In this document: positions 9,094 to 39,533 of the stretch, one piece after another
How the letters are laid out: each line of letters starts with the position of its first letter
Position numbering within the stretch: the first letter of the stretch is position 1
Program-made: the position numbers and the translations under genes
DNA from: Apiotrichum sp. Y4204
Taxonomy: Eukaryota > Basidiomycota > Tremellomycetes > Trichosporonales > Trichosporonaceae
DNA length: 64,000 bases
Assembly (NCBI GenBank): GCA_025531455.1
Contig: JAMYHL010000046.1
Span: 1-64,000, forward strand
Direction: 5' to 3'
Notes under the pieces: model-generated
Told to the model about the DNA's origin: nothing
What the model saw: the letters and a program-made list of their open reading frames with translations, nothing else
Databases searched by the model: none

Positions 9094-11682
9094 TCAAGCA
9101 AGCGCGATGGGACTACTGAGAGCAAGGGTGACGGGGGATCCCTGAAGCTTGACCCACTGAATGGGAGGCTCATCGCCAACAACGTCATTGGTGACCTGGC
9201 CGCCAGAGGTGGTACCGGTGGGAATGGTGACAGGGATGGGTGCGGCACAGTTGAGGTTTTCGGCAGAGACAGCAAGATGGGTGATGGCGTTGCCAGCTGA
9301 GTTGAGGATGTAGCTAACCGAGGGCTGACACTTGTCCACGGTCATGCGGTCGATAAAGTAGTGCGCAAAGTCGTCCCCACCAAGCGAGACGATAGGCCAG
9401 TTGGTGATACGGCTGAGCTCATCGACAATGGTCTCAACCCACCCCATAACCAGAGACATCTTGGCGGTGCGGCCACCAGCGGTGATGACAGGCATGTCTG
9501 TGTACCGCATATTGGCTTGGTGGAACATGTAAGGGTCGGCTTTGAGGGCAAGGAGGTAGGGGACGTTGACTTGGCGGGCGTTGTCGAGGAGATCGACGTA
9601 GGTTCCCCAGCCCTGCGAAATGTCCTTCCACTCCTGGACGTCGCATTCTCAAGTGTCACAATTGTAGTAGATTGCGGTGGCCCAGCGGGGAACAATGACT
9701 AGTCCGTCGTAGCCATTCTCGGCGACGGTGGAAATGCGAGGGTGATAGGGGGAGTCGGTGCTCCTCAGGACAGGGCGGGTGTTGTCACCTACGACGTAAG
9801 TGATACCGTTGTCCATCCAAGCCTTGATGACGTCCCCGTTGTGGAGACCAGTGATTGCCGGGGGTATGAGCGAGTGAGGAGCAAAGTGGCCGGCGGCGAT
9901 GCCAGTCTGGGCCATCCATGCCTGGTTGAACTGGATCTCTTTCGCGGCGTCACGATAGGTTGCGTTGTTGAGCTCCATATGGGTGAACGTGTGCGACACG
10001 TGCATGAAGGCGTCACGGTTCGAAGCGTCCGCATACCAGTGAGTGAGGGCATCAAGCTGAGTGCATTGGTACGACCAGGGGTAGGTTGTCCATGTGGTTG
10101 GCCAAAAGACCTGACCAGTGCCGAGGGGCTTCTGGAACTCGAGGGGAGTCGCAGGAACTTCTGGGTAGTCGACAGGCTCGTCGGGAGTGCAGACACCATT
10201 GGAGCCGTGGGGCTCGGTGGCAGCAATGATGTCGCCATTACCGTTGTGGCCCAGCTCAAGGCGGAAGTTGGAGCCCGCGGGGAGACGCGAGTTGAGGTCG
10301 ATCTGCCACTCCTTGTGGCCAGTCAGGTCCCCGGGGCGGAGACGGAAAGTGGCACCTTTGGGGCTGTAAATGTCGGTGAGAAGCTCGAGGTCGTCAATCT
10401 GAACGTTCAGGTGGACCTTGCGCTTGCCAAGGAAAGCGCCACGGGTCATCCAGTGAATGTGGGCGTGCTCGAGAGTGGCGGCGGTAGGCGACCAGTTCGA
10501 GGCAAGGGGCATAAACCAGACAAACTGTTCACGCCCACTGGGGAACTTGTTGATTACGGCAGCAACACCGGACGCGCCACCGTCAGTGGCAGTGTCGAAA
10601 ACGGCCACGGGCTTGGCGATAGACGTATCGGTAATGATTGCTGGGTAGTGCCACTGGTTGGAAGTCGAGAGCTTGACGTTCCTGATAATGTCAGTTTACG
10701 GATATCTTCAAAACTGCGGACTGGCTCACGTCTTGAGACGTGCTGTTGGGAAGTCACTGTCGTCGGTGAGTGAAATGAATTGTTCGACGTTGGCACCGCA
10801 GCAGCCAGTGATAGCGGATGCACCTGACGAGTTAACACCGAACAAACTTTGTAAGGGAATTTCTAAAGGGCCGGACTTACCGTAGTTAGGACCCGGGTAC
10901 TCGTTGATGCGGACCATCCGGACGCGGAAAGCTTCCTGATACGTGTGCAGAGCGTCCCATTGAGCAGTGGTGAGGGCGCTTGCCCAGACACCACCGTCAT
11001 ACTCATACGCCAGACCGTTGAAGATGATGATAGAAGAATAGTGACCTTGAGTGGGGGAGGCGGCCAGAGTCGGAAGAGTAATACCGCTGGAAGGAACGGT
11101 GACGATTTCATAGGGAATGCCATAGCTGTCAAGACCGTGGTAGCCGGCAATAGCGTCCGCAGCGTTGGGTGCGAGGATGAGAACCTTGTTGGCAACGGTA
11201 GCGCCTCCAACCGGGCCGGGACTGGTTGGGAGAGGGTTGGGAGTGGTGGACGCAACGGTGGTTCGAGGTGCCTCGGTCGGTATGTTGGAAGAGGTCATGG
11301 TGGGAGTCTTAGTGGCAGTCACTGAAATCTGAGGCGCAGTGGTTGTTGGAGCCACAGTCGGGGCGGTGGTGGCCGGGCCAGCAGTGGTGACGGGAGTGGC
11401 AGTGGAGGCCGGACGAGAAGTGGTCGCCGCAGGGGTGGATGAACTGGTGCGGGTCGTCGTGGACTTGGTCGGGAGAGTGGACGAAGCCTTCACAGTCCTC
11501 GTGGTGCAAATCTTAATCAAACCTAGTTTGAGACACGACGAAGTAACAGCTGCCGAAGGAGCTACAGCCGCTTTGCTCTGGCGTCTTTCAAGAAGAGCGC
11601 GGCGATGCTCCTGCCGTGGACCGTGGGCATCAACGGAGCCCATGAGGGCCAGGACGGCTAAGAGTCCGAAAGAGACTCGCAT
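9094..11682 (-). CDS. agd3: Agd3-like exopolysaccharide deacetylase, interrupted by one in-frame stop
   Basis: Exons 11682-10881, 10823-10730 and 10681-9094 (introns 57 and 48 bp) form one frame of 827 codons. It starts with a signal peptide (MRVSFGLLAVLALMGSVDA), then a Ser/Thr-rich linker to about residue 160, then a domain beginning KVLILAPNAADAIAGYHGL. The deacetylase part has the Asp pair in VQIDDLELL (395-396) and the HTFTHMELNN box (His529, His533). This layout matches Aspergillus fumigatus Agd3, which partly N-deacetylates secreted galactosaminogalactan and so gives the polymer its positive charge. Codon 643 is TGA (9649-9651) with conserved-looking sequence in the same frame on both sides. 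No intron of the right phase removes it. The allele may be null, an error or a readthrough case. The ega3, sph3, uge3 and gtb3 homologues lie next to it. Confidence 0.8.
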
Positions 11683-13854
11683 GGCAAACGAACGTTGTTT
11701 TCAAAGGAGTGTCTGAGCGGGAAGAGGTCTTGTATCAATGATGGAAGAAAACGGTGGAGTAAGTGAGTAAAAGTGAGAAGATTGGAGGATGGGAGTAGTA
11801 AAGGAGATTTTGAACGGGGGAGAGATCAAGAAAGTGACCGTATTGCTGTTAACAGTTGACATTGAGCAACTGCCACCAGAATGACTGGGCAGGATCTCCA
11901 GGAGATGACGAACCGTGTACTCAAAAGCCATATCAAGCTTGACACTTGCTCTTCTCCAGCTTCTTTCAACAGATTCGTCCCCTAAGCCGGCCGGGAGGTT
12001 TCAGGCATATACCGGTCGCTGTAACCTCAAACCGTTTCAAAGCCATAGAATCCGCACCTTACTGGGGGAAGGGGGAACACACATGGCGTTCGCGCAGTGC
12101 GACATGGCGTCGAAGGCAGGAATTCACGAAGTTCGACCGAATCATGAAAGATCATCCCAAGATGCTTCCAGTATTAGTGCCCCTATCAAATGTGCCGTAC
12201 TTTGTCAATGCTCATGAGCGTTGTCGTAGGTAGCTAAACGGGAGCCAAAAGGAAAACTCAGGGAGTGGGGTGTGAAGAAAGTTCAAGCCATGTTCGAACA
12301 TTTGGGTGAACAAGATTCTTGAGCAAGTGCACTTGCCGTCCAGGGGGCGCTGGGTGCGAGTATCTATCCTAGATGTCACCCCAGGTGGTCAAGGCTGGTG
12401 GCTGAGACCGACCACACCAAACAGGGTGCCGATCGCGTGTGTCGGTTTGTGTCATCCTTGACTAGAGGTTTTCGTCTCGATTGTGGCTGGCCGGATGTCA
12501 CGGAACATGGACGGGTAGGACAAACTGTGGCGTTAATCGACAGAAGGGGGGATGGCGTTCAAGACGTTGAAAGCCAGATGGCCAAGAGAGGGAAGCTGGG
12601 CGGAAAGGGTGAATGGAAAAGAAAGAACAAGCCAAACGATCACTAATCAGAGGCGGATCTGCGACGCGACGCATCCAACAATGTGAGAAAGAAAAAAGGA
12701 AAGGTGTAGAATGTTTAGAGTAAAAGAGAACTCGCCGCGAGGACAATGACCCCACGAGTGGAAACACGCGGCGTACTGTACATGCACATGTTGAGATCCG
12801 ACACGGAGAATCGTAAACAAAACCCGAAGGGGCCCCACAGCGGACCTGCGGATCGGCGCCGATTGCCGATCACCCTAGCGTGTCCGTGTCCAGCGCGCTA
12901 TGTGGTGCAGACACGCATTCCTTCTGGCGTGCCGCGGATCCGCCGATCCTGTCGATCCGTGCAGCCCATCGCGCGGATCCTGTCGATCCCCCCCTAGTCC
13001 GCTCATTCACTCTCTTCTTTTCTCTCTTTTGTTTCTCTTCCACGACTATGTGCATGCATGATCGAAGCTGCACCAATTCAGCAAGCAACGGACGAGGAAA
13101 GGCCTTTGTACAGAAGCTCAAAAGCCTCCACCCGGCCACCCGGCCGCCTGCAGCGCGCGACACGGGCGGGCCGAGCGAGGCCCAAGAAACTTGCTGGGGG
13201 TGGCCCCTGTTACTAAAACCCCTTTGCGACCTCCCTGTAGCCTGCTGGTGGCCTGGTGGCCAACAATGACTGAGCATGCTTAGCAAGGCCTGTAAATGTC
13301 GACATCTCCGGGCCGCTAACATGCAACCACTGAAGCATGCGGAGGAGCAACGACAGTGCAACATGCGGCCGCCATTGCTGGCCAGTCCTGCTTGGTCAAC
13401 ACAGTCTCCGTCTAGTCAGAGTGAGGACTTGGCTGCCACGACGACCAATCTCTCTACATTCCACTCTTTCTCTCTGCACTGGTTCTGGACCTTCATTCAT
13501 TCCTTCTCGCCCGCTCCTGTGAGTGCGCATAGCTCCAGCCCCCGTCGCTCGGCGGACATCTGCTGTACCACCCACTGTTGCCGCATCTCCGCAGCTTTCT
13601 CTCACTCTCCCTCTTTGACCACTACTGAGCGTCTTCATCAGGAACATTGGCTGCGCCTTTTGTTCCGGCTTACCTCCACTGTCTCTACTGCATCATTTTA
13701 TCCGTGAGTCGGTGGCGATCAGTGCCAGCATGCACCTTGCTGAGTGACAGCAGCTACACTTGACTCACTGGCGCGGTTGAGGCAGGCTAGAGAGCTAAAC
13801 CACAGTTTGGGCCAAACGCTAGAGAAAAGTCCGAACCTCTGAACCGCCATTACT
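11683..13854. other. Long divergent intergenic region between agd3 and ega3
   Basis: No convincing gene in 2.2 kb. It holds the divergent promoters of agd3 (minus) and ega3 (plus). Pyrimidine-rich tracts lie near 13005-13040 and 13450-13510. A 14-bp phrase GATCCTGTCGATCC occurs at 12945-12958 and again at 12976-12989. Confidence 0.5.
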
Positions 13855-14951
13855 ATGCTTCTGTGCTTCCTCTTCTTTCTTGTTTCTTTTGCAGCTGCGG
13901 CTCCCCATGAGCGCCGAAGACAGCAATGCTCAAGGCGGTGGGCGCCGGGCAGGTCCTCCTCGACCCACACTATGGCTGTCACTGCCAGCCCCGTGACGCT
14001 CACCCCTGTCTCCACTTCATCAGCTGGGTTCGCCACTGGCTCGGTCGTCGGGTCCTCCGTGGCTGGCTCATCTTCTGTCAGCCAGACCCAGCCAAGCACG
14101 ACCCATAGCCCTCCCTCTTCTGCTCCGGCTCCCAATGGGGTCTGGCAGCCCACGATTGGCACCTCATGGCAAATCATCCTCTCAGAGCAGATCAAGTTCG
14201 ACAGCAATGGAGGTGTCACTCCCAATGTCGACATCTACGATCTGGACCTGTTCGACACTCCGGCCTCCACAATCTCCAAACTTCACGAGGCTGGCAAAAA
14301 GGTCATTTGCTACTTTTCCGCGGGCTCCTACGAAGACTGGCGACCCGACAAGGAGTCCTGGACAGCTCTTGGCTCGAACTTGGCAGAATGGGCGGGAGAG
14401 CTCTGGGCCGATGTGCGTACGGAAAACGTCCGTAACATTATGAAGGAACGCATTGCGCTGGCCGCCTCCAAGGGGTGTGACGGCATTGACCCCGACAACG
14501 TTGACGCTTTCGTGAGTACTGCTGTCAATGGTGCCAAGTCTGGATTCTGCCGAGTTATTGACCCCACTAGGACAACCAAAATGGTCTTAGTCTGAATGCT
14601 GCGGACGCGGCCGACTTTGTGAAGTTTCTCGCTGTAGAAGCCGCCAAGTACAACATGGCTACTGGTCTCAAGAACTCTGCGGCGATTGTTCCCGATGTTC
14701 TTCCGTACGTTCAGTACTCGGTCAACGAACAGTGCGGTCAGATTGGCGAATGCGATCTCTTTGCGCCCATGACGCAAGCCGGCAAGCCGGTCTACAACAT
14801 TGAGTACCCCCCCAATGGTCCCTCTCTCTCGGAAGCCGATAGCGAATCAATGTGTCAAGCCGCCACGACTTACAACTTCAGCACTGTGCTCAAAAAGATG
14901 AACCTCGACGGATGGGTAAAGTATTGCGGCAACTCAACCCTCACAGGCTAG
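13855..14951 (+). CDS. ega3: Ega3-like endo-alpha-1,4-galactosaminidase, GH114
   Basis: Two exons (13855-14511, 14571-14951) around a 59-bp intron give 345 residues. An N-terminal hydrophobic signal (MLLCFLFFLVSFAAAA) and a Ser/Thr/Pro linker to about residue 95 precede a GH114 barrel. Recognisable blocks are NVDIYDLDLFD, KVICYFSAGSYEDWRPD, GCDGIDPDNVDAF joined by splicing to DNQNGLSLN, then VYNIEYPP. In GH114 an Asp and a Glu act as catalytic residues; DGIDPDN and NIEYP are the likely sites. The A. fumigatus enzyme cuts alpha-1,4 bonds between galactosamine units of GAG. Its position between agd3 and sph3 supports a role in trimming or remodelling the same polymer. Confidence 0.9.
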
Positions 14952-15924
14952 TGGCCGGAGCTTAGTGCATCCTGTTGAAAACTCCTTCGATCTGTAGCCT
15001 GCTTTTTCTTTCGGGTGACTTGTCATAGTCAGTGGTCGCCCCTGCGGAGCGGTCCCGCTGCCCTTCTTGTAAAACCCGCTGTGCGGTATATGACACCGGT
15101 GGTCGTTTTCCAATCAACTGCGTGACTCCATTTCTCACTTCAACCCGCTGGATACATCCTTTGTTACAACCGGCCTGAAAGCTCGGGAGGCGATTGAGGA
15201 AAAAGCCTTTCGACAATGGTCAAGACCGCTTCCCTTCACCGCATCGCCTTCGGGCTTAGTCATGTGAAGCCGTTGTGAAGGCTCATGTCTTTTCGCCAAG
15301 AATCGGCTTTTGCGAGCCTCGACTGACTAAATGTAGCTCAGCGCCAAGAGACACTCGAGTACAGCATCGGAGCGCGCAAATTTGGCAAGAGTTGGCACCA
15401 AAGCCTGGTGGACGGTCAAGGTTGTTGGGTGGCTTGTCTGATAAGCAAGCCTCCAACACAGTTGTTTCAGTCACAAAGAAGTCGCCGGGTTTGTCACTCC
15501 ATGACTTCAAGGATAGCCAGCAAGCCCTTGGGGACGACAACGTTTTGAGGCTGCACCGTGTTTGCCGGACGGTGAGGCGAGCGAGATACGAGTGATTTTT
15601 TACGGAAGAGACATTGCCAGAAGGAGGAAAGCTGCCGGTGAGTACCCTGATGTTGCTGAAGCCGCGTCTACAGTCCGCATTTACCGGAGTTTACGAGGTG
15701 GCTACTCATGAGACATGCATTCTAGAGTGGAAACGACATGGATTCTACAGTGTGTTGTGCTAAGTGTCGCAATTTGTGTGTCTATAACTGGCAGCCGCGG
15801 GCAGGAGCAGGAAAACAGAGTTGCGCATTGTTCAGGACAGAGACAATCTCCGATGGCTCGCCATAACACATCTACAGAGCGGTAGTCACGGGCTAGGTCT
15901 TGAACGGATGCGGGCGAGCGTTTC
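14952..15924. other. Convergent intergenic region between ega3 and sph3
   Basis: No gene seen in 973 bp. It holds the 3' ends of two convergent genes, with no coding-like frame or RNA gene that I can support. Confidence 0.5.
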
Positions 15925-17117
15925 TCAAGTGTTTCTGTTCATTTCGCCGACGGAGCAAGCCACGGGGAGCCATGACGTGGGCCATTCGTTGTAACCGCCA
16001 TCCAGCTGCTCGGTGATGTAAAGGCCGCCAAAGCCCAGCTTTCTGATCTCGCTGGCGAGTGCTGTCGCTGATTTCCCCTCGCGCTTGCTTGGCAGGTTGA
16101 CACCGTCTGCATAAACGCCAAAGGAATGGATCATGGCCACCACCTTGTGTCGCAAGGGGGCAGGGACTTGACAGAGGCCCTCGTTCAGGAAGTAGTTGCA
16201 CCAGCGCTGGTGCGACTGCTCGAAGACGACTACGAGGTCGGCGTCCTCCAGATAACCCTTATCGACGACGACTCCAGGGTTGTAGACGACCAAGCCTCTG
16301 GGGCGGCCAGCACCGGCGGTACTGTCAGGTTTGGTTGGGGGGTCGGTCGCCCGAGTGGTCTCGGTGGAACACCACAGCTGGCGAATGTAGGTTGCCAAAT
16401 CGGCCATGTAGGTGCGATGTGTGCATTCCCATGGGGCTTCATCGATGAAGATCCCGTCAATGTGGAACTCGCCACAGGACGCAGCTTCCCACGCCCCGTA
16501 AACCTCAATCTCACGCTTGATGATGTCGGGGTCACGCGCAGCATACTGGCAATGCACGTAGCCTATCAGCTGGATGTTGGACATCCGACTGAGCTTGCCG
16601 AGGGCGGCCCTGTAATTGACATCGGGTAGCGACTCTTGGCCGGGACCACTGTTGGGGTTGACGACACAGACGAAGAGCACATCCGGGTTGGAGGCAGCCG
16701 CAGCGAAGAGCGGTTCCCATGCTCCGGGAGACGGATAAATGTAGAGAGGGAGAACGAGCGTTAGTCGTGTCATGCGGGGCGACGGGCGGGATAACAAACG
16801 ATGAAGGCGTGAAGGAGGCATGCTGGGGACTGGGCGTTGTCAAACGTTGAGGTCGGGTCGATAGCTTAGGGTGTCGGAGGAGAGAAAAGACGGCAGGCAA
16901 GTCAACCGGCGTGAGGCGGAGAGCTAAGAACAACAATACGAGAGGATGCAGAAGCAGTGCAAAGATGACCTGGACTCGTTTGTCGATCAAACCTCCTATC
17001 GCTGCCCTCCGAAGGCTTCTGGGAAGGACCAGCGCCTACTTGGGAGCCGCTTGGAGCACGGGCTCTTGAATACGAACAGGCGAGCAGAGACCTTTACCGG
17101 ATGCTTGGCCGGCGCAT
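15925..17117 (-). CDS. sph3: Sph3-like spherulin-4 family glycoside hydrolase (GH135), N-terminal join unresolved
   Basis: The catalytic part is one exon (16821-15925, 298 residues from its own ATG): LTLVLPLYIYPSPGAWEPLF, VVNPNSGPG, FHIDGIFIDEAPWE, GLVVYNPGVVVDKGYL, DLVVVFEQSH. These are spherulin-4/GH135 hallmarks. A. fumigatus Sph3 hydrolyses GAG and is needed to make it. Upstream, a short exon (17117-17098, MRRPSIR) splices over 79 bp to 17018. It then reads a basic stretch and a clear membrane helix (VQVIFALLLHPLVLLFLAL), as expected for the N-terminal anchor of this family. That exon ends in a different frame from the catalytic exon, and I found no good GT-AG intron of the needed phase. 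A non-canonical splice, a frameshift or an independent start at 16821 are all possible. Confidence 0.82.
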
Positions 17118-19053: not shown

Positions 19054-20352
19054 ATGGCGTCCGCATTCTACCAGACCGCTTCCGGTTGTTCGTCAGCCTC
19101 GTCGCTCACCGACGCTCCCGGTAGCACCTGTCCGACCACTCCGGGACTGGAGAGCGATGCCGTATTCTTTCCCCTTGCCAACAACAACAACACCTACACA
19201 CTTGTCATCGGCGGTCTCGGTTACATTGGCTCCCACACTGCGGTTGAGCTCCTCAAGGCTGGAAAAAACGTTGTTATCGTCGACGACTGTAGCAACAGCT
19301 TCGACACGGTTCTCGCTCAAATCACCACCGCCGCAAGCATTTGGTGCAAGTCGAATCATCGTTCCCTCCCCGAGCTCCAATTTTACCAAATGGACTACCG
19401 TAGCAAGGCCATGCGTTCTATGCTGGAGTCCTACTCCGACCTCGTTCTTGAAGCTCCTGGACAGGGCGGCGAGCCCACACTCTGCAGACGCTCAAAAATC
19501 GTCGGCGTCATTCACTTTGCGGCCTTCAAATCCGTGGGCGACTCGATCTCCGATCCGATCAGTTACTACCGCAATAACGTTTCCGGTCTCATTGACCTCG
19601 TTGATCTTCTCGGCAGCCACAACATCAAGAAGTTTGTCTTTTCATCGTCCGCCACCGTCTACGGCACCAAGGCCGACCTCGGCCTCCCTCTCAAGGAGGA
19701 GGATGTTGTTCATCATCCTTACACGTACTTCAATAACGGCAAGGAGGTCACCGTCATGCCTGGCGTCACCGGCCTTCTCTCGCCCTACGCGCGCACGAAG
19801 TACTTTGGTGAAGCCATTCTTGCCGACCTTGCCTATTCTGATCCCTCGTGGAACATTATCGCCCTTCGCTACTTCAACCCCATCGGCTGTGACGCCTCGG
19901 GCCTTCTCGGAGAGGACCCCCGCGGTGTTCCCACCAACCTCTTTCCAGTAATTACCCAGGTTCTCACTGGTGACCGCGAGCATTTGAACATTTTTGGGTC
20001 CGACTGGGACACCCGCGATGGGACCGCCGTTCGCGACTTCATTCACGTGTCTGACCTGGCCCGCGGTCACATTGCGGCGGTCGACGCCACAGTAGATGCG
20101 CCTTTCCGGACCTTTAACCTTGGCACCGGAACTGGGACGACCGTGGCCGAGGCGCTCTCGGCGCTCGAAGCCGCCTCAGGACAAAGAATCCCAAGCCGTC
20201 TGACTGGGCGCCGCGAAGGCGACGTCGGCTCTTGTGTGGCTGCCAATGCCCGAGCCACCATAGAACTTGGTTGGACGACTACCGAGACTGTGGTACAAGC
20301 GGCACGCGATCTTTGGAACTTTGTGTCCCGGTTCCAGCATGTTGCGGCTTGA
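19054..20352 (+). CDS. uge3: UDP-glucose/UDP-GlcNAc 4-epimerase, Uge3-like
   Basis: An intronless gene of 432 residues. It is an extended SDR-type epimerase: NAD-binding GGLGYIGSH (residues 53-61), VIHFAAFKSVGDS, SSSATVYG, and the catalytic Tyr245-xxx-Lys249 (YARTK). Conserved LRYFNPIGCDASG and RDFIHVSDLARGH follow. Residues 1-48 are a non-conserved Ser/Thr/Pro-rich extension. The reaction is interconversion of UDP-Glc/UDP-Gal and probably UDP-GlcNAc/UDP-GalNAc, supplying both sugars of GAG. The GAG-specific role rests on its neighbours agd3, ega3, sph3 and gtb3. A housekeeping GalE cannot be told apart from motifs alone. Confidence 0.88.
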   Translation: MASAFYQTASGCSSASSLTDAPGSTCPTTPGLESDAVFFPLANNNNTYTLVIGGLGYIGSHTAVELLKAGKNVVIVDDCSNSFDTVLAQITTAASIWCKSNHRSLPELQFYQMDYRSKAMRSMLESYSDLVLEAPGQGGEPTLCRRSKIVGVIHFAAFKSVGDSISDPISYYRNNVSGLIDLVDLLGSHNIKKFVFSSSATVYGTKADLGLPLKEEDVVHHPYTYFNNGKEVTVMPGVTGLLSPYARTKYFGEAILADLAYSDPSWNIIALRYFNPIGCDASGLLGEDPRGVPTNLFPVITQVLTGDREHLNIFGSDWDTRDGTAVRDFIHVSDLARGHIAAVDATVDAPFRTFNLGTGTGTTVAEALSALEAASGQRIPSRLTGRREGDVGSCVAANARATIELGWTTTETVVQAARDLWNFVSRFQHVAA

Positions 20353-21134: not shown

Positions 21135-21421
21135 TGTCACTGCAGTACCTTGGTGTGCACGGCGCGACCTTAGGACAGTAGCGAATGGTGTAGTTCTAGC
21201 TAGGATGGTATAGACGCGATACATTCGCTACTGTATTCTACATGTACGAATGCTCTCTTTTATACTGTGCGAACACAGACGTTCGCACCATGAAGACTTG
21301 TCCTCCGGCGGCCGCTCCTTAGTCATACTTTCCTCCTATTGGCACGCCTTCGGAGAGCGGATGCCCGCGGTTCGTCCGTCGGAGGCGCTCCTTCGGTAAT
21401 ACTCGGTGCAGGTCCGTGACA
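21135..21421 (-). repeat. 3' LTR (287 bp)
   Basis: It matches 27925-28211 with no differences that I see. Ends are TGTCAC and GTGACA. An internal inverted repeat (ACAGTAGCGAAT at 21175-21186 and its complement at 21223-21234) could fold a stem with a 36-nt loop. Confidence 0.95.
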
Positions 21422-21433
21422 TCCTCCCCCCTC
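21422..21433 (-). other. Polypurine tract
   Basis: On the element's sense strand, a run of purines (GAGGGGGGAGGA) directly precedes the 3' LTR. This is the usual primer for plus-strand DNA synthesis. Confidence 0.8.
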
Positions 21434-21792
21434 AGGCCGGGCCGATGGTCCTTGTTCCACCCGTCGTATGCACGCATACGAGTTGCGAACAAAGGGGTTC
21501 GGGGCGCAGGGGCGCAGCTTGCGCCCCTCGAGCCTGGAACATCGATTGCGTAATCGCCACGTTCGGCGATTGTCATAACACCGGGGACCCCGCATGAGCC
21601 GTCCTCGAGGAAGGTGGCGACGGCGGACACAAGTGTTCTCGCGTGAGAACTGCAATCTTGACATTGTACTTCTCTCCATTCTCGCCGTCCTCTTGCACGC
21701 TCGCGATCGTCTTCGAATTCCTCTTGCGCGTCCCTTCGTTCCTCTACTACTCGTAGATCCGCCTCTTTCGCCGACGCCGAATTGCGCCCTTC

Positions 21793-22698
21793 ATGCCGCC
21801 GAAGAAGAAGTCCGCCCGCAACAGCGGTGGTGCCGAGGAGGAACGCGCTTCGGATTCGGAGTCCCTGCATTCGATTAACTCGAATGACGTCGTTAAGCAG
21901 CCGAAGCAGCTTAAAGCTGCTGCCGAACAGCGTCGCGCCGAGTACCGCTTCGCCAACTTCGCTCGCGCGAAGGCGGTTACCGCGAAGCAGAAGGCCGAGC
22001 TTCTGAAGGACCTGAAGCAGCGCGCCGATTCCGCTCTTCAGGATTCGCGGCGCAAGTTCTTCTTGCAGGTTGAGGAGCTTCTTGGGTCGAATGACGGAGC
22101 CCAGCTTATTGAGGTCGATGGTGAGTGTTCGGGGACTGCGAAGCCTAACATTCTAGACAATTGTACCAACTGCAAGGACGGTTCGTGCGTCGTAGTCGCG
22201 CGTCCCCTTACCGAGGCCGAGGTCGTCGACTACAGTGAGAACGACTCCCTCGAACTCGGTGGTTACGTCGAGAGCCTTGATCTTCGCGTGATTTCGCCTT
22301 GTCTCCGGTGCATCAAGAGCTCCATCGGGTGCTCCATTCGGGCGTCCTCGTATCGTCGTCGCGGCACCGTTGCCCTGAGTCCGGCCCAGTGGAGCGCTGC
22401 TCAAGAGTTCGCGAACGCGTCTGCTCGGGCGATTAAGGGGCTTTACAATCTTGTCCCGAAGAGCCAGGTGGATGCTGCGAAGGCTATAACTCGCGAGTAC
22501 CGTTTGGCTGCTGGCCGTTATCAGGAGGTGGGTGTTCGGGCGTCCGGGGGGCTAACGTTCTAGGTCCTCGGAGAGCGTGTCGTCGAGAAGAAGACCAAGA
22601 AGCGTGCCGCTCGGAGCCCTTCTCCCCTTCCCAAAGGCGTGGATGACCTGCTCGGACTCATTCAGCTCGGCCAGCCGTCGCAGAAGAAGCGCCGCTAG
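21793..22698 (+). CDS. Antisense spliced gene inside the retrotransposon: Cys-rich, basic protein of unknown function
   Basis: On the strand opposite to gag-pol, between its stop and the 3' LTR, three exons (21793-22120, 22157-22527, 22564-22698) give 277 residues. Each intron is 36 bp with GT...CTAAC...AG. The first could be read through in frame, but the second ends in an in-frame TAG, and splicing it adds a 45-residue basic tail ending QKKRR. The N-terminus is MPPKKKSAR, so both ends look like nuclear signals. The middle has paired cysteines (CTNCKDGSC, then CLRCIKSSIGC), a possible zinc-binding cluster. A helical charged stretch (about residues 30-100) may be a coiled coil. I do not recognise a family. 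A cargo, regulator or nucleic-acid-binding role is only a guess. Confidence 0.65.
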
Positions 22699-22921
22699 GC
22701 GATCGTTCTCTGCCGGTAGTCTCGAAAAAGACCGGCCGTGGTTCCGCAGCGATAGTCCCGGACCACGTAAACCATTATACGATTCGCCCGAGGGTTAATT
22801 CCGGGCCCCGAATAGCAGTGTTCGCCATTTTGTAGAGTACTGTGTATAATTATCGCATGTATGGGTATGGTCGTGTATTCGTGGTATATTCGAGTCAGTT
22901 CGTCACCCGCAAGAGAGACTT

Positions 22922-25900
22922 CTAGTTGCCGGAGCGGCGAGGGCGGAGGCGCGAAGGCGGTGCCTCCGATTGCTCCGGAAGGATGGGCTCGAGAACCCAT
23001 CCTTTCCATCCGGGAGCCGTACGTGGCTTGCCCTTTGAGCGAACTCGAGGTTCTACCTTGTCCCGGATAGAGGCCCAATGCGGGTTCGAACACATTGTGT
23101 TCTCGGTTTCCCAGCTGAATTCGGTGCCGCCTGGTCCTTCCCAGCGCACGCGGAACTGCTTCTGATCGCGTACCGTACGCCTTTGTACGACAGCCGCTGG
23201 GACTTTCGTCGTGTCAGCGAAGCCAGCCTCCTGCGGTCCTTCTTCCGGCTGCCCGGACGCCTCGTTCGAGTCGGCGCGGCCGTGGTACGGTTTAAGGAGC
23301 GAGACGTGAAACGTGTCGTGCGCGCGGGCTCCGGTCGGCAGGTCGAGTCGGTACGTCACCGGGTTGATAACCTTCGTGATCCGGTAAGGGCCCGCGAAGC
23401 GGTCGGATAGTTTCTTCGAAGGTTGTAGCACCTTCAGGTTCTTCGTGCGGAGTAACACTCGATCGTTGACTTCGAAGCTCTGGTCGCGGTGCTTCGCATT
23501 GTAGTGCTTGGCGTACCGTTCCCCTTGCTGTCGCATTGTCGAATGTAACAGTTCGTGGAGCGCCTCTAGGCGCCGCGCATGATCCTTAGCATCGAAGGGT
23601 GCGTCCATGTCTTTGGAGCAGGCATCGAACGCCGTCCTTCGTGGTTCGAACCCGGTGAGCGCCTGTAGAGGGGAGACTCCGGTGGTCGAATGCGCTGTAC
23701 TGTTGTAGCAGAACTCCGCCTTTCGAAGGTGCGCCGTCCAGTTCGACTGGTCGGTGGAGCAATACGTGCGCAAGTACTGCTCCAAGTTTTTGTTCACGCT
23801 CTCTGTCTGGCCGTCCGTCTGCGGGTGGAAGGCTGTGGACATTCGGTGGTCGATCCCTAGGCTTCTAGCAGTCGATTGCCAGTGCAAACTAGCGAACACT
23901 GAGCCCCGATCCGTTACTAAGGTGGACGGGAGTCCCCAGCGCGTATACACATGTTCGAGGAACAGGAACGACCATCCTTCGGCTGATAGGGTAGTGGTGG
24001 TCGGGACAAAGATCGCCATCTTCGTGAATCGATCCACTACCACCAAGATCGAATTGTAGCCGTCCGAGATCGGTAGCGGGCCAATGAAGTCTGCGGACAG
24101 GTGCTGGCAAGGTCGTAACGCCAAGGGAAGAGGGCGGAGAAGGCCATTCGGCTTCCCGGGCGGTATCTTTGTCTTCTGGCAGCGGGTGCACGAGCGCACA
24201 TATTCGGTGACCTCGTGGCTCATGTTCGGCCACCAGAAGCGGACTTCTATGGATCGAAGTGTCCTGTTCGCGCCTGGGTGTCCGAACGCGGGGTCGTCAT
24301 GGTAGGCCCGGATCACCGATGGGCGGGCTTCGGGGCCGACGAAGAGCTGTTCGGCTCTGAACCATAGGCCGTTCAGGGATCGAAGGCCGTGTTTCGCACG
24401 GGTCTGTTCGTCGGGCTCGCTCGCTAGGTTCAGAGTCGCGAGCAGCGAGTCCGCAACCATCGTTGTCGTGTTTTCGACATGACGGAGTTCGCAGCGGGGC
24501 TTGCTGAGTTCTTGCTTCGAAAGCCATGGTCCGACAACGTTGAACGGGTTGAGCTCCGCCGAAAGGGTTGTAGCCGTTGTGTCCGAAGGCTGATGATCGG
24601 GCCGTCGGGATAGGGCGTCCGGTTTCGTACTGATCTTTCCGGGCCGGTAGATGATTTCGTAGACGAATTCGCTCATGAATTCTAACCAGCGCGCTTGGCG
24701 GCGCGTAAGGATCTTAGTCGTCGAGTAGAACTCTAGGCTTCGGTGGTCCGTATATACCTTGATCGGCTCTTGCGTACCCTCCAGGTAGTGTCGCCATGTT
24801 CGAAAGGCGTGTACGATTGCGAGATACTCTTTATCGTGCGTCGGATAGTTGAGTTCGGCGGGTACCATCTTCCTTGACGCGAACGCCACTGGAAGCCAGC
24901 CGCGCTCATCCTTCTGGCTGAGGATCGCTCCGATCGCGTAGTCGGACGCGTCGGTTTCGACCATCGTAGGGTCTTCGGGTTTGTAGTGGCGAACAACCTG
25001 GTTCGAGGCCATGATCTTCTTTACTCCGGCCCAGGCTGCCCGGATCCCGGGGGTGCAGACGAAGGTTCGCTTGTCGCCCTTGGTGGCTTCGATGAGCGGA
25101 ATCGTTGCCTTCGTAAAGCCGGGAACTAGTGTCCGGTAGAAGTTTACCAGTCCCAGAAAGGATTGGACATCTCTGACGGATTTCGGCAAGGGCCATTCTT
25201 GGATGGCTCGAACCTTGTCTTCGTCCATCGAAACGCCTTCCGGTCTGATATCGTATCCCAGGAACTGTACTCGATCAGTGAAGAACTCGCACTTCTCTCC
25301 TTTGGCGTAGAGCTTATTGTCGCGGAGTCGTTTGAGGACTTCGCGGCACGTATTCACGTGTTCGCGTCGCGAATACGTGAAGACTAGGATGTCGTCCAAG
25401 TATACGATCACACTGGTATCGAGCATGTCTCGAAAGATGTCGTTCATTAGGTGTTGGAAGGTAGCCGGTGCATTCGTCAAACCGAATGGCATGACTAGGT
25501 ATTCGAACAGGCCGAATCGGGTGCGAAAGGCTGTCTTCCACTCATCCCCCTCCTTGATGCGTACGAGGTTGTACGCCCCTCGGAGATCAATCTTCGAGTA
25601 AAACTTCTTTCCTTCGAGCTTGTCGATCAGGTCCCGGATCAAGGGGATCGGATACCGGTTCTTGACTGTGATCGCGTTGAGGCGCCTGTAGTCTACGCAG
25701 AGTCGAAGGGAGCCGTCCTTCTTTTTAACGAAGAGGATCGGGGCCGCGGCCGGCGAGGTCGACGGTCGAATGAAACCCTTCGCTAGGTGTTCGTCCAAGT
25801 ACTCGCGCAGGGCGGTTTGCTCGGTAACTGACAGCGAATACAGCGGTCCGAAGGTGGTTTGCGCGCCCTCTAGCAGCCGAATAGAGTGATCGAAACGCCC

Positions 25901-27895
25901 GTGTTCGGGGAGCTTATCGGCTTCCTTCTTGGAGAACACGTCCTCGAAGTCCGCGAACTCAGGGGGGATCGTTGTGGCTTCGAGGATCTCTTGCTTGAGT
26001 TCGGCTCTCGAAACACGGAGTTCGGGCGGGTAGCGGGGACGCATGGTACGGGCTTTCCAATCGATGTCCGGGTTGATTTTTTCTAGGAACGGAAGTCCCA
26101 GAATAATCTCCGGAGCCTTGCCTTCGAGAATCTCGAAGGCTCCCTCGTAAGGGTGAAATCCTTCGCCGAAATTGACCGTGATTCTGGTGTGTCGGTCGAG
26201 AGGTGCCTCGGCCGCCGTAGCGAGACGTACGTTCTCCGGAGACGCCTTGTTCGTCACCCGGAGGTTGGTTTTCTGTACCATTTGGGGCGTTACGAAGTTG
26301 CGGTTCGCGCCGCAGTCGATAAACGCACGAGTTTGGAAGAGTTCGCCCTTGTCACCGCGGAATTCGATCGGGATCGTGAACATGGGTGGCGTTGGGTGGT
26401 CTTCTTTGTGCGAAGTCGTGGGTTCGATGTGCGCGTAAGCGCAACGGGGGCGCGATCCTCCGTCCTCGATATCGATTGCCGTGGCTTCGAGTTCGGATTC
26501 GGAGTCGAACAGGATGGGGTCGTCCTCCCGGGGGAGGTCACCCTCCGAGTCCGAATCCATGTATTCTTCTACGCGGGCCATAGCAATTCGAGGTGCGGGG
26601 GGCGCCGCTCGGTTGGGGTTGTTACGGCAGTTCGCCCAGCGGTGGTCTCCTGATCCGCAGCCGAGACACTTGCCTTCGGCACGCCACTTCTCCTTCTGGG
26701 CGAACGAAGGTCGCCCGGAAGAAGGGTGCCTTCCGGAAGTCGGACGCTGCTGTCCGCCGTGGGGACGGGCATCCTTCGGCTGGGAGGTTGTCCTCGTAGT
26801 GTCGAACTGGCGGGTTCGACCCTGCCCTTGGTGCTCCGTTCGGATCTCTCGGAGTCGCTGTTCGATGGCGGTCGCTGCCGAAGCCAATGCCTTCGGCTTT
26901 TCGTAGACGCGCCCCTGTTTGATCAGCTCGTCCTTCAACTGGTCACGGAGGCCGAGTTCGAACTGGTCGGTAAGCGCCCGTTCGTCCCAGAGCGTATATG
27001 GTGCCCAGGCAATAAACGCCGTGTAGTATTCTTGCACCGAACGCGTGTGCCGAGTCCTTCGAATGTTGTATACGGCCTCGCGTTGCGCGTTCGCAGGGCC
27101 GAATTGTCCAAGGAGTTCGGCCGCGAACGAAGCCCAGTTGTCCCTCCATTCGGGGTTCCCATAAGTGACTTCGGAGTGGTACCATTGTTGAGCCTGGCCC
27201 CGAAGGAAGGTGGACGCCCACACGATCTTGTGGCGATCGTCCACGAAGTGCCAAGGTTGAAGGTCGAACGCCGTCTCTACTTGTCCTAGAAACAGGGCTA
27301 CCTTGTTGGCTTCTCCGTTGAATTCGGAGGGTTTGTTCGGGGCAATCGGTTTGCCGTGGAAGCGATGGTCAGGGTCGACCGTCAGGGTTCGCTCCCTCGA
27401 AGGGAGGCGTTCGGGGGGCGTTTCCCTGAACTCGCTATCGTAACGCCGGGCGCCGTGTTGGCGAAGGCGATCCTCGTGGGGGGGGTCTTCGCGGTTTTCG
27501 TACTCAAGTTTTCGAATTGTAGTTTTCATTGTTTTCTGTTCTCGGGCCATGTCGTCGAGGTTGCCTTGAACTCTCTCGAGTTTGGACAGTACGGCGAACA
27601 TGGCTTCGTGTAAGTCGATGTTGGTTTTCGCTGGTCGTTCGTCGTCTTCGTTGTCGAACAGCTGACTATCTTCCTCTAGGACGCTGTCGTCCTCATCAAG
27701 GTCTTCGTCCTCTCGGAGGCTCTCGTTCGGGGTCGCTCCCTGCGGTCCGGTGGGGGTACTAGGCCCATCCGGATGGGGAAGTTCGGTGGCCTGCCGATCC
27801 TCCATTTCGACTCCTTCGGTCCGAGTACTCGGGCCTTGGGAGCGTGTAACTCTGTCTGTTCGACCGGTCGGAAACCGGTTGTTCGGGAGCGACAT
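22922..27895 (-). CDS. Gag-Pol polyprotein of a Ty3/Gypsy chromovirus
   Basis: One uninterrupted frame of 1,657 residues. In order: an acidic N-terminus and gag-like region; a zinc knuckle CLGCGSGDHRWANC (about 409-423); aspartic protease FIDCGANRNF (about 525); reverse transcriptase with YLDDILVF (about 832); RNase H with ETDASDYAIG (about 985); an integrase H2C2 finger ending CTRCQ (about 1200-1240) and a core with SADFIGP, VTDRGSVF and GQTES as the DDE set (about 1272-1368); then a chromodomain-like FRVRWEGPGGTEFSWE near 1560-1600. Gag and pol are fused with no frameshift, as in Tf1-like elements. The protease box reads DCG rather than the common DSG/DTG. CpG is plentiful, unlike the OTU gene at the window start. 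Confidence 0.95.
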   Translation of the reverse strand: MSLPNNRFPTGRTDRVTRSQGPSTRTEGVEMEDRQATELPHPDGPSTPTGPQGATPNESLREDEDLDEDDSVLEEDSQLFDNEDDERPAKTNIDLHEAMFAVLSKLERVQGNLDDMAREQKTMKTTIRKLEYENREDPPHEDRLRQHGARRYDSEFRETPPERLPSRERTLTVDPDHRFHGKPIAPNKPSEFNGEANKVALFLGQVETAFDLQPWHFVDDRHKIVWASTFLRGQAQQWYHSEVTYGNPEWRDNWASFAAELLGQFGPANAQREAVYNIRRTRHTRSVQEYYTAFIAWAPYTLWDERALTDQFELGLRDQLKDELIKQGRVYEKPKALASAATAIEQRLREIRTEHQGQGRTRQFDTTRTTSQPKDARPHGGQQRPTSGRHPSSGRPSFAQKEKWRAEGKCLGCGSGDHRWANCRNNPNRAAPPAPRIAMARVEEYMDSDSEGDLPREDDPILFDSESELEATAIDIEDGGSRPRCAYAHIEPTTSHKEDHPTPPMFTIPIEFRGDKGELFQTRAFIDCGANRNFVTPQMVQKTNLRVTNKASPENVRLATAAEAPLDRHTRITVNFGEGFHPYEGAFEILEGKAPEIILGLPFLEKINPDIDWKARTMRPRYPPELRVSRAELKQEILEATTIPPEFADFEDVFSKKEADKLPEHGRFDHSIRLLEGAQTTFGPLYSLSVTEQTALREYLDEHLAKGFIRPSTSPAAAPILFVKKKDGSLRLCVDYRRLNAITVKNRYPIPLIRDLIDKLEGKKFYSKIDLRGAYNLVRIKEGDEWKTAFRTRFGLFEYLVMPFGLTNAPATFQHLMNDIFRDMLDTSVIVYLDDILVFTYSRREHVNTCREVLKRLRDNKLYAKGEKCEFFTDRVQFLGYDIRPEGVSMDEDKVRAIQEWPLPKSVRDVQSFLGLVNFYRTLVPGFTKATIPLIEATKGDKRTFVCTPGIRAAWAGVKKIMASNQVVRHYKPEDPTMVETDASDYAIGAILSQKDERGWLPVAFASRKMVPAELNYPTHDKEYLAIVHAFRTWRHYLEGTQEPIKVYTDHRSLEFYSTTKILTRRQARWLEFMSEFVYEIIYRPGKISTKPDALSRRPDHQPSDTTATTLSAELNPFNVVGPWLSKQELSKPRCELRHVENTTTMVADSLLATLNLASEPDEQTRAKHGLRSLNGLWFRAEQLFVGPEARPSVIRAYHDDPAFGHPGANRTLRSIEVRFWWPNMSHEVTEYVRSCTRCQKTKIPPGKPNGLLRPLPLALRPCQHLSADFIGPLPISDGYNSILVVVDRFTKMAIFVPTTTTLSAEGWSFLFLEHVYTRWGLPSTLVTDRGSVFASLHWQSTARSLGIDHRMSTAFHPQTDGQTESVNKNLEQYLRTYCSTDQSNWTAHLRKAEFCYNSTAHSTTGVSPLQALTGFEPRRTAFDACSKDMDAPFDAKDHARRLEALHELLHSTMRQQGERYAKHYNAKHRDQSFEVNDRVLLRTKNLKVLQPSKKLSDRFAGPYRITKVINPVTYRLDLPTGARAHDTFHVSLLKPYHGRADSNEASGQPEEGPQEAGFADTTKVPAAVVQRRTVRDQKQFRVRWEGPGGTEFSWETENTMCSNPHWASIRDKVEPRVRSKGKPRTAPGWKGWVLEPILPEQSEAPPSRLRPRRSGN

Positions 27896-27911
27896 CCTAA
27901 GGTGCGATTCT

Positions 27912-27922
27912 CGAATGTATCG
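27912..27922 (-). other. Self-primer binding site
   Basis: Two bases inside the 5' LTR the sense strand reads CGATACATTCG. It is exactly complementary for 11 nt to CGAATGTATCG within the LTR (28017-28007, sense), and the match ends on both sides. Tf1-type elements use the first 11 nt of their own RNA as primer in this way. The site is not a typical tRNA-complementary TGG sequence. Confidence 0.7.
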
Positions 27923-27924
27923 TC

Positions 27925-28211
27925 TGTCACTGCAGTACCTTGGTGTGCACGGCGCGACCTTAGGACAGTAGCGAATGGTGTAGTTCTAGCTAGGATGGTA
28001 TAGACGCGATACATTCGCTACTGTATTCTACATGTACGAATGCTCTCTTTTATACTGTGCGAACACAGACGTTCGCACCATGAAGACTTGTCCTCCGGCG
28101 GCCGCTCCTTAGTCATACTTTCCTCCTATTGGCACGCCTTCGGAGAGCGGATGCCCGCGGTTCGTCCGTCGGAGGCGCTCCTTCGGTAATACTCGGTGCA
28201 GGTCCGTGACA
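27925..28211 (-). repeat. 5' LTR (287 bp) with promoter
   Basis: The LTR acting as promoter for gag-pol. It matches the copy at 21135-21421 with no differences that I see. It contains a TATAAAAG box and the predicted RNA start. Confidence 0.95.
28017..28054 (-). promoter_or_regulatory. LTR core promoter: TATA box and predicted RNA start
   Basis: On the sense strand TATAAAAGAG begins at 28054. The 11-nt segment complementary to the primer site begins at 28017, 37 nt downstream. If priming is Tf1-like, 28017 is the RNA 5' end. The spacing fits a normal TATA-to-start distance. Confidence 0.6.
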
Positions 28212-28216
28212 ATCTT
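28212..28216. repeat. Target-site duplication, right copy (ATCTT)
   Basis: Identical to 21130-21134 and directly adjoining the LTR end. Confidence 0.9.
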
Positions 28217-35400: not shown

Positions 35401-38016
35401 CTCAACCTCGGCAACACCAACATCGTCTTCCATTACCATTACAAGCGCGGTAACAAGGGCAACTCCCACGTCCTACGGGCCGACTACGCCATTACTCAAG
35501 GCAGCAACTCGCTGTCAGTCTTATGGGGCAACCCTGTGGATACGGAGAACTTTACTTGGGTGCCTTCCAAGCGTGTTGGCCTTGTGAAGCGCTGCATCAG
35601 TGGGAGAGTGTACATCACCGAGTACGACTGGTCCCACCGTCGGGACCCGATTCTGACAACCTATGTCGAGGAGGGTGGACGCCGCACCGCCATTGCTGAG
35701 GCGCCCAGTGTCTTTCCCAAAGAGTCCACACTTCTCACGGTTCCGACCAACCACTCATTTGAGCTTGACGACCTCCTGCTCCATCACTCGACTCTTCAAC
35801 TCGGCCAAATGCGCCGTTGTGCCATCAAGAAGCCGAGTCGCGTCGCCAAGCTAAACCCAGTCTACTGGCTCGGCGCTTGGCGGAAACGCACGTACACCCA
35901 TATCCCGACTTGGCGTCTGCGCACAGAGCTGTGGAACCAATGGCTGAACACCGACCAGGTTGACGCTGTCACTGCTTGCACTGTCGACGAGATTCTTCTG
36001 CGCGAGGAGCCGCTTCTCCGCAACTACTGGTGCAATCGTGACCGTGGACGCCTCGATGCTGCGCGCAAGGCTCTTGACGATAACATCCACCAAATCGTCT
36101 CGGCCATCGACATTGAGACGGATGTTTCCGAGAAGACGCTGATTGCCATCCGCACTTCGGACCTGTACGCGATGGGCCTTGGGCAAGACGCCAACCCCGT
36201 CACAACTCGTCCGCAGGACTGCTACAACGACACCCGTGATCGCATATCAGTCATCTTCAACGACATTGGCTGCTGGCCCGTCGCCCCTGGCGGTGTGTCA
36301 AACTGTCGTCGTGATCTTGTCAATGGCCACAACACCATCCGCAATCACGTCCTTGCCGAGTGCGCCAACGACTACGGCATCCCCCGTTTCCAGGTCGAAA
36401 AGAGTGTTCAGTCGCTCAAGCTTCTCCCGCTGTGGGGTATGGACGGTGGCACAGCCAAGCACGGTGTCATTGACAACTACCTCGAGTCACAGGTCGACGA
36501 GAAGGTGGAAGACACGGAGCTTGACCGCGACATTGTGAAGACTTTTGTTCCTCTCCTCGATGACTTTGTCAAAGGCTGCCGCACCCGCCGCCTCTCGTAC
36601 AATGATCTTGTTCAACTTTCAAACGTCTTCCTATCCATGGCGAAGTATTACCAGTACAAAGATTACACTCGCACTTGGCGCTCGGCTCAAGTTGAGCAAG
36701 CCTGGATAGCCGCGTGGCTCAAAGAGTACAACGACCCCAACATTGTGGAGCCGACCGAGTGCTTTGAGATCTCCCGCCCGTCCATGTTTGACTTTCGCCA
36801 GGCACTTTATATCTACCTCGCCTACTTTTTCATCTTCGCCGTCGGGGTTCCTAAACATTGTCCTCGCGTCTTCCAGTCGACACATCATGGTATCAGCTCT
36901 CTCTTTGGCATGGTGCTCAAGTACCGCCGCGGCGTTACGTTCGGCATCTGGGACCACGCCATTCTATGGCGCGAGAGTTGCCTCAACTTCTCCGTCGCAC
37001 AGTGTGAGCTTCCAGTGGCCGTGCAAAACATGCTCCTCTCTGGTATCGGCGTCGCCACTCGTCTGGCTTACTTCCACACCGATGTCATTATGCCCTGCGC
37101 CTCGCTCTTCAACCCCATGTGGGAGTGTGAGCTTGGTTCGGATGGCGCTCGTGTCTGCAGCCGCAACGTCTTCCGGCGCAAGATTGACCCCATCGTCAAT
37201 GGTATCTCGAACATGGAGGCGTTCACCCCTGTGGAGAGGGTCCGCAGCGAGATCCCAAACGTTCTCATGCTCTCCAATGTACAGTTCATCAAGGGCGTCA
37301 AGGTTGCCATCCAGGCGGCCGACATCATCGTCAATCGTTTTGGCTTCAAAGACTACAAGCTCGTCGTGTATGGCGCCAAGGACCGTCAGCCGGCGTACTG
37401 TCTCGAGATGGAGAAGCTCATTGTCGATTACAACCTCTCCGAGCACGTCATCCTTGCAGGTTTCGGCAATCCTAAGGAAGTCCTCAAGGACGCTTGGTTG
37501 TTTATGAACTCTTCCATCTCGGAAGGTCTCCCGCTCGCTATCGGAGAGGCTGCATTGGCTGGCGTGCCGATTGTTGCCACCGAGGTTGGCGCCACCGCCC
37601 TCGTCCTCACCGACCCCGATGACTCCGACCAACGTTACGGTGAGGTCGTTCCCCCCAACGACCCCATGGGCCTCGCCCGCGCTCAGATCAGCATCCTCGG
37701 CATGGTTGGACCGTGGGCGAAGTTCACTGCTCCTAAGACAGGCCCCGCACTACCCGACGTGATCAACGCCGAGGACGTCGAGTGGCTCACCAAGCGTTTC
37801 TACGAGTTCTCCGATGATCGTCGCAAGCTGGGCTTCCTCTCGCGCCAGGTCGTCCTACGCAGTTTCCATGGATCCCGCTATCTCCGTGAACACGAACAGA
37901 TGTACTGGATCCAGTGGCATTTTGCTCGTATGCGCGCCGACACGACACTCAAGCCGCTTCCCTACAAGTTTGGCGTCCAGGAGCTGCTGCGTCACAGCGA
38001 GGAGGATGAATCGTAG
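29476..38016 (+). CDS. gtb3: Gtb3-like GAG synthase: very large multi-pass membrane protein with C-terminal GT4 domain
   Basis: Two exons (29476-29768, 29820-38016; 51-bp intron) give 2,829 residues. A first helix (FNLIFAVAAMTLPILVYAV) lies near the N-terminus. Soluble domains follow to about residue 910, then three helix groups (about 918-1108, 1238-1302, 1338-1445), then further soluble sequence. The C-terminal 400 residues are a GT4 glycosyltransferase. Its N-lobe has FQSTHHGISSLFGM and GIWDHAILWRE (about 2450-2480), similar to bacterial PelF; its C-lobe starts NVLMLSNVQFIKG (about 2576) and has the EGLPLAIGEA motif (about 2666). In A. fumigatus Gtb3 is the proposed synthase and exporter of GAG, drawing on UDP-sugars from Uge3. 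Length and architecture match that protein. No break was found. Confidence 0.88.
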
Positions 38017-39488: not shown

Positions 39489-39533
39489 AATTGAGTGGAG
39501 TGGCGAGGGCAATCAGTCCTTACTGTCGTCCTT

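What the first reader, a model, noticed from the sequence alone, without database searches (positions are those of the whole stretch)
9094..38016. Complete galactosaminogalactan-type gene cluster in a likely basidiomycete
Homologues of agd3, ega3 (GH114), sph3 (spherulin-4/GH135), uge3 and gtb3 lie together with no other host gene between them. In Aspergillus these five make, trim and deacetylate GAG, an adhesive alpha-1,4-linked Gal/GalNAc polymer. Their co-occurrence here supports a GAG-like secreted polymer in this fungus. The short introns throughout suggest basidiomycete gene structure, so either ancient linkage or transfer between phyla is implied.
Basis: partly seen in the sequence, partly recalled or inferred. 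Interest (0 to 1): 0.9.

Follow-up and report, generated by a model that had tools for sequence, protein, structure and literature searches.

The report
Sticky-sugar gene cluster, deacetylase broken
A yeast-like basidiomycete carries five linked genes for an adhesive sugar polymer that its lineage probably acquired from a mould, and its genome holds two diverged copies of the region, in both of which the gene that makes the polymer sticky looks disrupted.

Summary
The five genes are there: agd3, ega3, sph3, uge3 and gtb3, each matched by profile or solved structure. The cluster is not new in kind: Lee et al. 2016 (PMC4817252, passages read) reported it in Trichosporon asahii and inferred transfer from Sordariomycetes. 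Here Gtb3 and Agd3 group with T. asahii (Gtb3 also with Cutaneotrichosporon and Vanrija), nested inside Sordariomycetes near Plectosphaerellaceae; keeping Sordariomycetes as one clade is rejected (AU p 4e-5 and 3e-4). So cross-phylum transfer is favoured over ancient linkage.

Two additions change the reading. (1) "Complete" is doubtful: agd3 has an in-frame TGA (9649-9651) upstream of the catalytic-acid motif, and a young Ty3/gypsy element lies between uge3 and gtb3. (2) The 48.9 Mb assembly holds a second, collinear copy, 85-92% identical, on contig C138. There gtb3, uge3 and sph3 are open and constrained (dN/dS 0.17-0.28), but ega3 and most of agd3 are deleted. If the TGA is real, no intact deacetylase remains and the fungus should secrete acetylated, non-adhesive polymer. 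The TGA could be an assembly error or an unfixed allele, since the rest of that agd3 copy shows no decay. No reads, transcripts or chemistry were available.

The parts
9094..11682 (-). agd3, polysaccharide deacetylase (CBM87 + CE18-type domain); exons 11682-10881, 10823-10730, 10681-9094; frame interrupted by TGA
   Evidence: Pfam PF25116/PF25115; PDB 6nwz; splicing by homologue alignment
9649..9651 (-). in-frame TGA inside the agd3 catalytic domain, at the slot of residue 625 of A. fumigatus Agd3; no change of length, no intron fits
   Evidence: (one TGA counted inside the match)
13855..14951 (+). ega3, GH114 family, 345 aa, intron 14512-14570 (59 nt), open, with N-terminal hydrophobic leader
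   Evidence: PF03537; model
15925..16821 (-). sph3, Spherulin4/GH135 family, 298 aa, open; no obvious signal peptide or membrane anchor in this model
   Evidence: PF12138, PDB 5d6t and 5c5g, model
19054..20352 (+). uge3, UDP-glucose/UDP-GlcNAc 4-epimerase-type, no intron
21135..28211 (-). Ty3/gypsy LTR retrotransposon; identical 287-nt LTRs (21135-21421, 27925-28211), target duplication ATCTT; gag-pol ORF 22922-27985; absent at the matching place on C138
29476..38016 (+). gtb3, large membrane glycosyltransferase (GT4), 2829 aa, intron 29769-29819 (51 nt)
5983..7273 (-). flanking host gene, bicupin (oxalate decarboxylase-like), 398 aa, two introns

Best explanation
This is a galactosaminogalactan (GAG) cluster of the kind already known in Trichosporon asahii, derived from an ascomycete related to Plectosphaerellaceae and inherited within Trichosporonales. 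It sits in a genome that carries two diverged, collinear copies of this region (probably a hybrid, possibly a very heterozygous diploid or dikaryon). In the window copy all five genes remain but agd3 is cut by a TGA; in the C138 copy ega3 and the catalytic part of agd3 are deleted while uge3, sph3 and gtb3 are kept. Expected working (inferred from the families): Uge3 supplies UDP-GalNAc and UDP-Gal, Gtb3 polymerises and exports the chain, Sph3 trims it, but without Agd3 the chain is not deacetylated, so it carries no positive charge, does not stick to the wall and is shed, and Ega3 has little substrate. Shown: presence, order, tree position, second copy, deletions, TGA, constraint. Inferred: enzymes' activity, loss of deacetylation, polymer chemistry.
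For: Gene identities. Trees: Gtb3, 41 rows, window with five Trichosporonales-type rows at 100 and with Plectosphaerellaceae at 100; Agd3, 30 rows, 100/99 and 95/95; AU tests reject Sordariomycetes as one clade (p 4.5e-5; p 2.9e-4). Second copy: seven collinear blocks at 84.9-92.3% identity between window and C138. Loss on C138: agd3 reduced to a 710-bp 5' piece without start or catalytic domain, ega3 absent; only one Agd3_CE match in the whole assembly. Retained genes constrained: dN/dS 0.184 gtb3, 0.165 uge3, 0.275 sph3. The TGA lies before the motif with M666 and catalytic acid H668, whose alanine mutants lose activity in A. fumigatus (PMC7229062 passages; position by counting). Deletion of agd3 in A. 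fumigatus abolishes wall-bound GAG without lowering secreted GAG (PMC4817252 passages).
Against: The window agd3 shows no other decay: the piece after the TGA is 52.7-57.3% identical to seven ascomycete Agd3 rows, against 50.0-56.0% for the T. asahii piece, and at conserved sites of the first domain the window copy has 0 changes against 6-7 in the C138 piece. So the TGA is very recent, unfixed or an error. One of four further stretches sampled for a homeologous partner (C124:150001-160000) found none in the 40 kb of C138 searched. Gtb3 copies elsewhere in the assembly were not searched (search unanswered, 20 tries).
Confidence: 0.58

Rival explanations
1. The TGA is a base error of the assembly or a minor allele. 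The window copy is then an ordinary working five-gene cluster, and only the C138 copy has lost ega3 and agd3, as expected when one of two homeologous copies is redundant.
For: No other lesion in the window agd3; the stretch behind the TGA is as conserved as in T. asahii; the first domain of the window copy is unchanged at conserved sites.
Against: Eight other gene copies from both contigs, about 7,770 codons, are open over the length of their homologues, though they were picked as open frames. The lesion is a substitution in a non-homopolymer context, not an indel.
Confidence: 0.35
2. The TGA is real but bypassed by stop-codon readthrough or mRNA editing, so some full-length Agd3 is made.
For: Conservation behind the TGA.
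Against: The bases after the TGA do not make the leaky context that I recall for readthrough (recalled, not tested); no transcript data.
Confidence: 0.05
3. The cluster was inherited vertically from a common ancestor of Ascomycota and Basidiomycota and lost elsewhere (ancient linkage).
For: The Trichosporonales rows form one clade, and presence in at least Trichosporon, Cutaneotrichosporon and Vanrija shows that it is not a recent, single-species acquisition.
Against: The clade nests within Sordariomycetes; AU tests reject the alternative.
Confidence: 0.03
4. C138 is not a homeolog but a haplotype of a heterozygous diploid or dikaryon, or a second organism in the culture.
For: The tools give no ploidy or read depth.
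Against: 8-15% nucleotide difference is large for alleles; natural hybrids are known in this order (passages of PMC7026411, PMC6642101, PMC12820176), though those are of other genera and about 40 Mb.
Confidence: 0.3

Closest known systems
GAG cluster of Trichosporon asahii (Lee et al. 2016, PMC4817252)
   Same: Five genes; same order family; Gtb3 62% and Agd3 64% identical; nested in Sordariomycetes.
   Different: T. asahii stains for a GAG-like polymer and has a MULE-type protein in the cluster; here a young Ty3/gypsy element, a TGA in agd3 and a second, partly deleted copy.
GAG cluster of Verticillium albo-atrum and other Plectosphaerellaceae
   Same: Gtb3 58% identical; agd3 and gtb3 locus tags ACHAQA_007225 and _007229 leave room for three genes between, as in the window.
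   Different: Ascomycete; inner order not seen here; extra agd3 paralogue (ACHAQA_003494).
GAG cluster of Aspergillus fumigatus
   Same: Same five enzyme families; Agd3 structure 6nwz and Sph3 structures match.
   Different: gtb3 lies next to agd3 there (recalled from locus numbers), at the uge3 end here.
Natural hybrids of Trichosporonales (T. coremiiforme, T. ovoides, C. mucoides)
   Same: Two diverged collinear gene sets in a genome about twice the haploid size (PMC7026411, PMC6642101 passages).
   Different: 48.9 Mb against about 40 Mb; this lineage branches outside Trichosporon plus Cutaneotrichosporon in the Gtb3 tree.

Membership tests
GAG biosynthetic cluster | Linked large GT4 glycosyltransferase (gtb3) | tested here: met
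GAG biosynthetic cluster | Linked UDP-glucose 4-epimerase (uge3) | tested here: met
   Cys at the pocket position that in human GALE admits N-acetyl sugars (alignment; meaning recalled)
GAG biosynthetic cluster | Linked Agd3-type deacetylase, intact | tested here: not met
   Family present but frame cut by TGA in the window copy and mostly deleted on C138; may be met if the TGA is an error
GAG biosynthetic cluster | Linked GH114 hydrolase and/or spherulin-like Sph3 | tested here: met
   Both in the window; C138 keeps sph3 only
GAG biosynthetic cluster | Secretion of a Gal/GalNAc polymer | not testable with these tools
   needs chemistry or lectin staining
CE18 (Agd3) enzymes | Catalytic motifs CM1 (D377, D378), CM2 (H510, H514), CM3 (R613) | tested here: met
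   aligned residues conserved; numbering from PMC7229062 passages
CE18 (Agd3) enzymes | CM4 (M666, H668) in the same protein | tested here: not met
   M and H are conserved but encoded after the TGA
Trichosporonales clade of the cluster | Gtb3 and Agd3 branch with T. asahii inside Sordariomycetes | tested here: met
Hybrid genome | Genome-wide collinear diverged duplicates | tested here: inconclusive
   C124/C138 and C68/C166 pairs seen; 3 of 4 extra stretches found a partner; BUSCO duplication and parents not tested

The most novel reading that the evidence does not exclude
Deacetylation of a horizontally acquired biofilm polymer has been lost from both homeologous copies of the cluster in a natural hybrid-like basidiomycete, by different lesions (deletions in one, a nonsense codon in the other), while the synthase, epimerase and Sph3 stay under purifying selection in both. 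The fungus would be a natural producer of fully acetylated, non-adhesive GAG, which would show that the polymer has a use other than adhesion.
Probability: 0.42. Interest if true: 0.65.

Novelty: new variant of a known kind. Interest (0 to 1): 0.5.

Why it matters
The GAG cluster is held to work through Agd3-made positive charge. A lineage that keeps the synthesis genes under constraint but has lost the deacetylase would be a natural test of whether acetylated GAG has a role of its own. The locus also narrows the donor of a cross-phylum cluster transfer, shows that the cluster is older in Trichosporonales than a single species, and gives two homeologous copies caught at different stages of decay.

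Tried and rejected
Considered and rejected: (a) that the TGA lies in a short intron: the two pieces align to 6nwz residues 502 and 504 with one codon between and no insertion. (b) Ancient vertical linkage: AU tests. (c) Subtelomeric position: no telomere-type repeats found in the window or in the first 50 kb of C138. (d) The cupin gene as a clean marker of the host: its three best-scoring hits are Tremellomycetes, but the fourth is an Aureobasidium protein at 77% identity, and T. asahii is not among the 120 listed. (e) Conserved flanking synteny: cupin and gtb3 tags are far apart in C. cavernicola and V. albida.

Led nowhere: naming the species (no eukaryotic reference collection). Base composition: third-position GC is 0.58-0.70 in cluster genes against 0.78-0.82 in two flank ORFs, but the whole first 40 kb is GC-poorer, so it does not show foreign origin. 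One search stopped on a script error after its gtb3 result; one search repeated the rest.
Full report
What is there. Profile searches of stop-to-stop ORFs find, in order, agd3 (minus), ega3 (plus), sph3 (minus), uge3 (plus) and gtb3 (plus) between 9094 and 38016. Agd3 and Sph3 match their solved A. fumigatus structures by sequence, and Uge3 matches human and other GALE enzymes. Splicing was set by alignment with homologues: agd3 has introns of 57 and 48 nt, ega3 one of 59 nt, gtb3 one of 51 nt behind a 5' exon that the stop-to-stop ORF had missed.

Interruption of agd3. The frame has a TGA at 9649-9651. The two pieces align to 6nwz up to chain residue 502 and from 504 on, so exactly one codon lies between and no intron fits; the whole-genome family search counts the same single TGA. 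By counting in those alignments against the residue numbers in PMC7229062 (passages), the TGA stands at residue 625 of A. fumigatus Agd3: motifs CM1 to CM3 lie before it, and CM4 with M666 and the catalytic acid H668 lies after it. Mutants of those two residues are inactive in that paper. The predicted product of 642 residues should therefore be inactive (inference).

Second copy. A Spherulin4 hit on contig C138 proved to be a 90.6% identical sph3. DNA fetched around it aligns with the window in seven collinear blocks at 84.9-92.3% identity, covering both flanks. Missing on C138 are window 8888-10874 and 11585-15262, that is, the catalytic part of agd3, the agd3 start and all of ega3, and the stretch with the retrotransposon. 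What remains of agd3 is a 710-bp piece without start or deacetylase domain. sph3, uge3 and gtb3 are open there, with dN/dS 0.275, 0.165 and 0.184 between the copies and dS 0.14-0.20. The agd3 piece has dN/dS 0.435 (0.294 for its CBM part) and dS 0.28-0.33. At sites conserved in outgroups, the agd3 piece shows 0 changes in the window copy and 6-7 in the C138 copy of 94 sites; gtb3 shows 19 and 29 of 2619. So the C138 agd3 decays, and the window agd3 was constrained until recently.

Hybrid or not. The assembly is 48.9 Mb, about twice the usual haploid size in this order and larger than any of the 33 strains in PMC7026411 (16.4-42.4 Mb; passages). A second pair of contigs, C68/C166, is also collinear (88.9% over 2.4 kb around GH114). 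Of four further stretches tested, three found a partner (C124:300 kb, C68:5 kb, C68:100 kb; 80-93% identity) and one (C124:150 kb) did not within 40 kb of C138. This fits a hybrid, but a heterozygous diploid or dikaryon is not excluded.

Mobile element. A Ty3/gypsy element of 7,077 bp lies at 21135-28211 on the minus strand, with identical 287-nt LTRs and a 5-bp target duplication, hence young. C138 has no counterpart.

Origin. Gtb3's best-scoring named hits are T. asahii (62%), Cutaneotrichosporon cavernicola (62%), Vanrija albida (60%), then Verticillium albo-atrum (58%). In the Gtb3 tree of 41 rows, selected from the 120 listed of 320 hits, the window, those three and two unnamed proteins form a clade (100), sister to Verticillium plus Plectosphaerella (100), inside Sordariomycetes. 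Agd3 gives the same grouping in a quick tree of 56 rows (97, with Diaporthe rows inside) and a careful one of 30 rows (95/95; the nearest sister, Plectosphaerella, has only 85/85). Forcing Sordariomycetes together costs 565 and 67.5 log-likelihood units (p-AU 4.5e-5 and 2.9e-4). Verticillium and Plectosphaerella are Plectosphaerellaceae, order Glomerellales, yet in the Gtb3 tree they too sit among Hypocreales, so transfers within Ascomycota may also have occurred. Trees of Ega3, Sph3 and Uge3 were not made.

Order. Locus tags were compared by eye for 14 species: gtb3 and agd3 differ by four in six (among them V. albo-atrum), by five in T. asahii, by two in three, and by other numbers in four. 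A difference of four fits gtb3 and agd3 at opposite ends with three genes between, as here. Tags do not show which genes lie between.

Host. The flanking cupin gene's three best-scoring hits are C. cavernicola, V. albida and Dioszegia (Tremellales), the fourth the ascomycete Aureobasidium (77% identity), so this marker supports but does not prove the placement. In the Gtb3 tree the window branches next to Trichosporon plus Cutaneotrichosporon, with Vanrija outside. The species is unknown.

How it probably works. In A. fumigatus, agd3 deletion leaves secreted GAG unchanged but removes the wall-bound form, and deacetylation is extracellular (PMC4817252 passages). By analogy this fungus would polymerise and secrete GAG but not charge it. 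Ega3 is described as acting on the galactosamine regions of GAG (PMC8224951 passage), so loss of both agd3 and ega3 on C138 is functionally coherent, though they are neighbours and may have been lost by chance together.

What weighs against. The window agd3 has no other lesion, and the stretch after the TGA is 52.7-57.3% identical to seven ascomycete rows, against 50.0-56.0% for T. asahii's. An assembly error or unfixed allele is therefore a serious rival. Against error: about 7,770 codons in eight other gene copies of the two contigs are open, with the caveat that they were chosen as open frames. I put real loss in both copies somewhat above one half.

Prior knowledge. Passages were read of PMC4817252, PMC8224951, PMC7329490, PMC8855340, PMC7229062, PMC7026411, PMC12820176, PMC6642101 and PMC5383668; none in full. 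In seven searches of the open-licence library (at most the first 20 rows seen each) I saw no title or abstract reporting loss of agd3 or a GAG cluster in a Trichosporonales hybrid. PMC8855340 reports two or three UgeB genes in Apiotrichum mycotoxinivorans (passage).

Noticed in passing
(protein lists): C. cavernicola and V. albida have Gtb3 among the best hits, but neither appears among the 120 listed of 882 Agd3 hits, where T. asahii ranks second. This may mean agd3 is lost or mis-modelled there too; rows 121-882 were not shown.
   Followed up: no
window 21135-28211: Young Ty3/gypsy retrotransposon with identical LTRs and target duplication ATCTT, 1.26 kb upstream of the gtb3 start; absent from C138. 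A further plus-strand ORF of 268 aa (21757-22563) inside it has no Pfam match.
   Followed up: partly
G000 C68:55113-55888, C166:56708-57483, C129:146769-147466, C1:567016-567375: Further GH114 genes outside the cluster; C68 and C166 copies are 88.9% identical at DNA level, so they look like homeologs. The C1 match holds an in-frame TAA.
   Followed up: partly
window 1-40000 against 48000-64000; C138 1-24000 against 31000-47000: GC step from about 0.56 to 0.62 at the same place in both copies; the cluster lies in the GC-poorer part.
   Followed up: partly
window 15925-16821 and L011: Sph3 model has no obvious signal peptide or membrane anchor in either copy; an upstream exon was not found.
   Followed up: partly
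window 38000-48000: About 10 kb right of gtb3 with long ORFs of which those scanned have no Pfam match.
   Followed up: no
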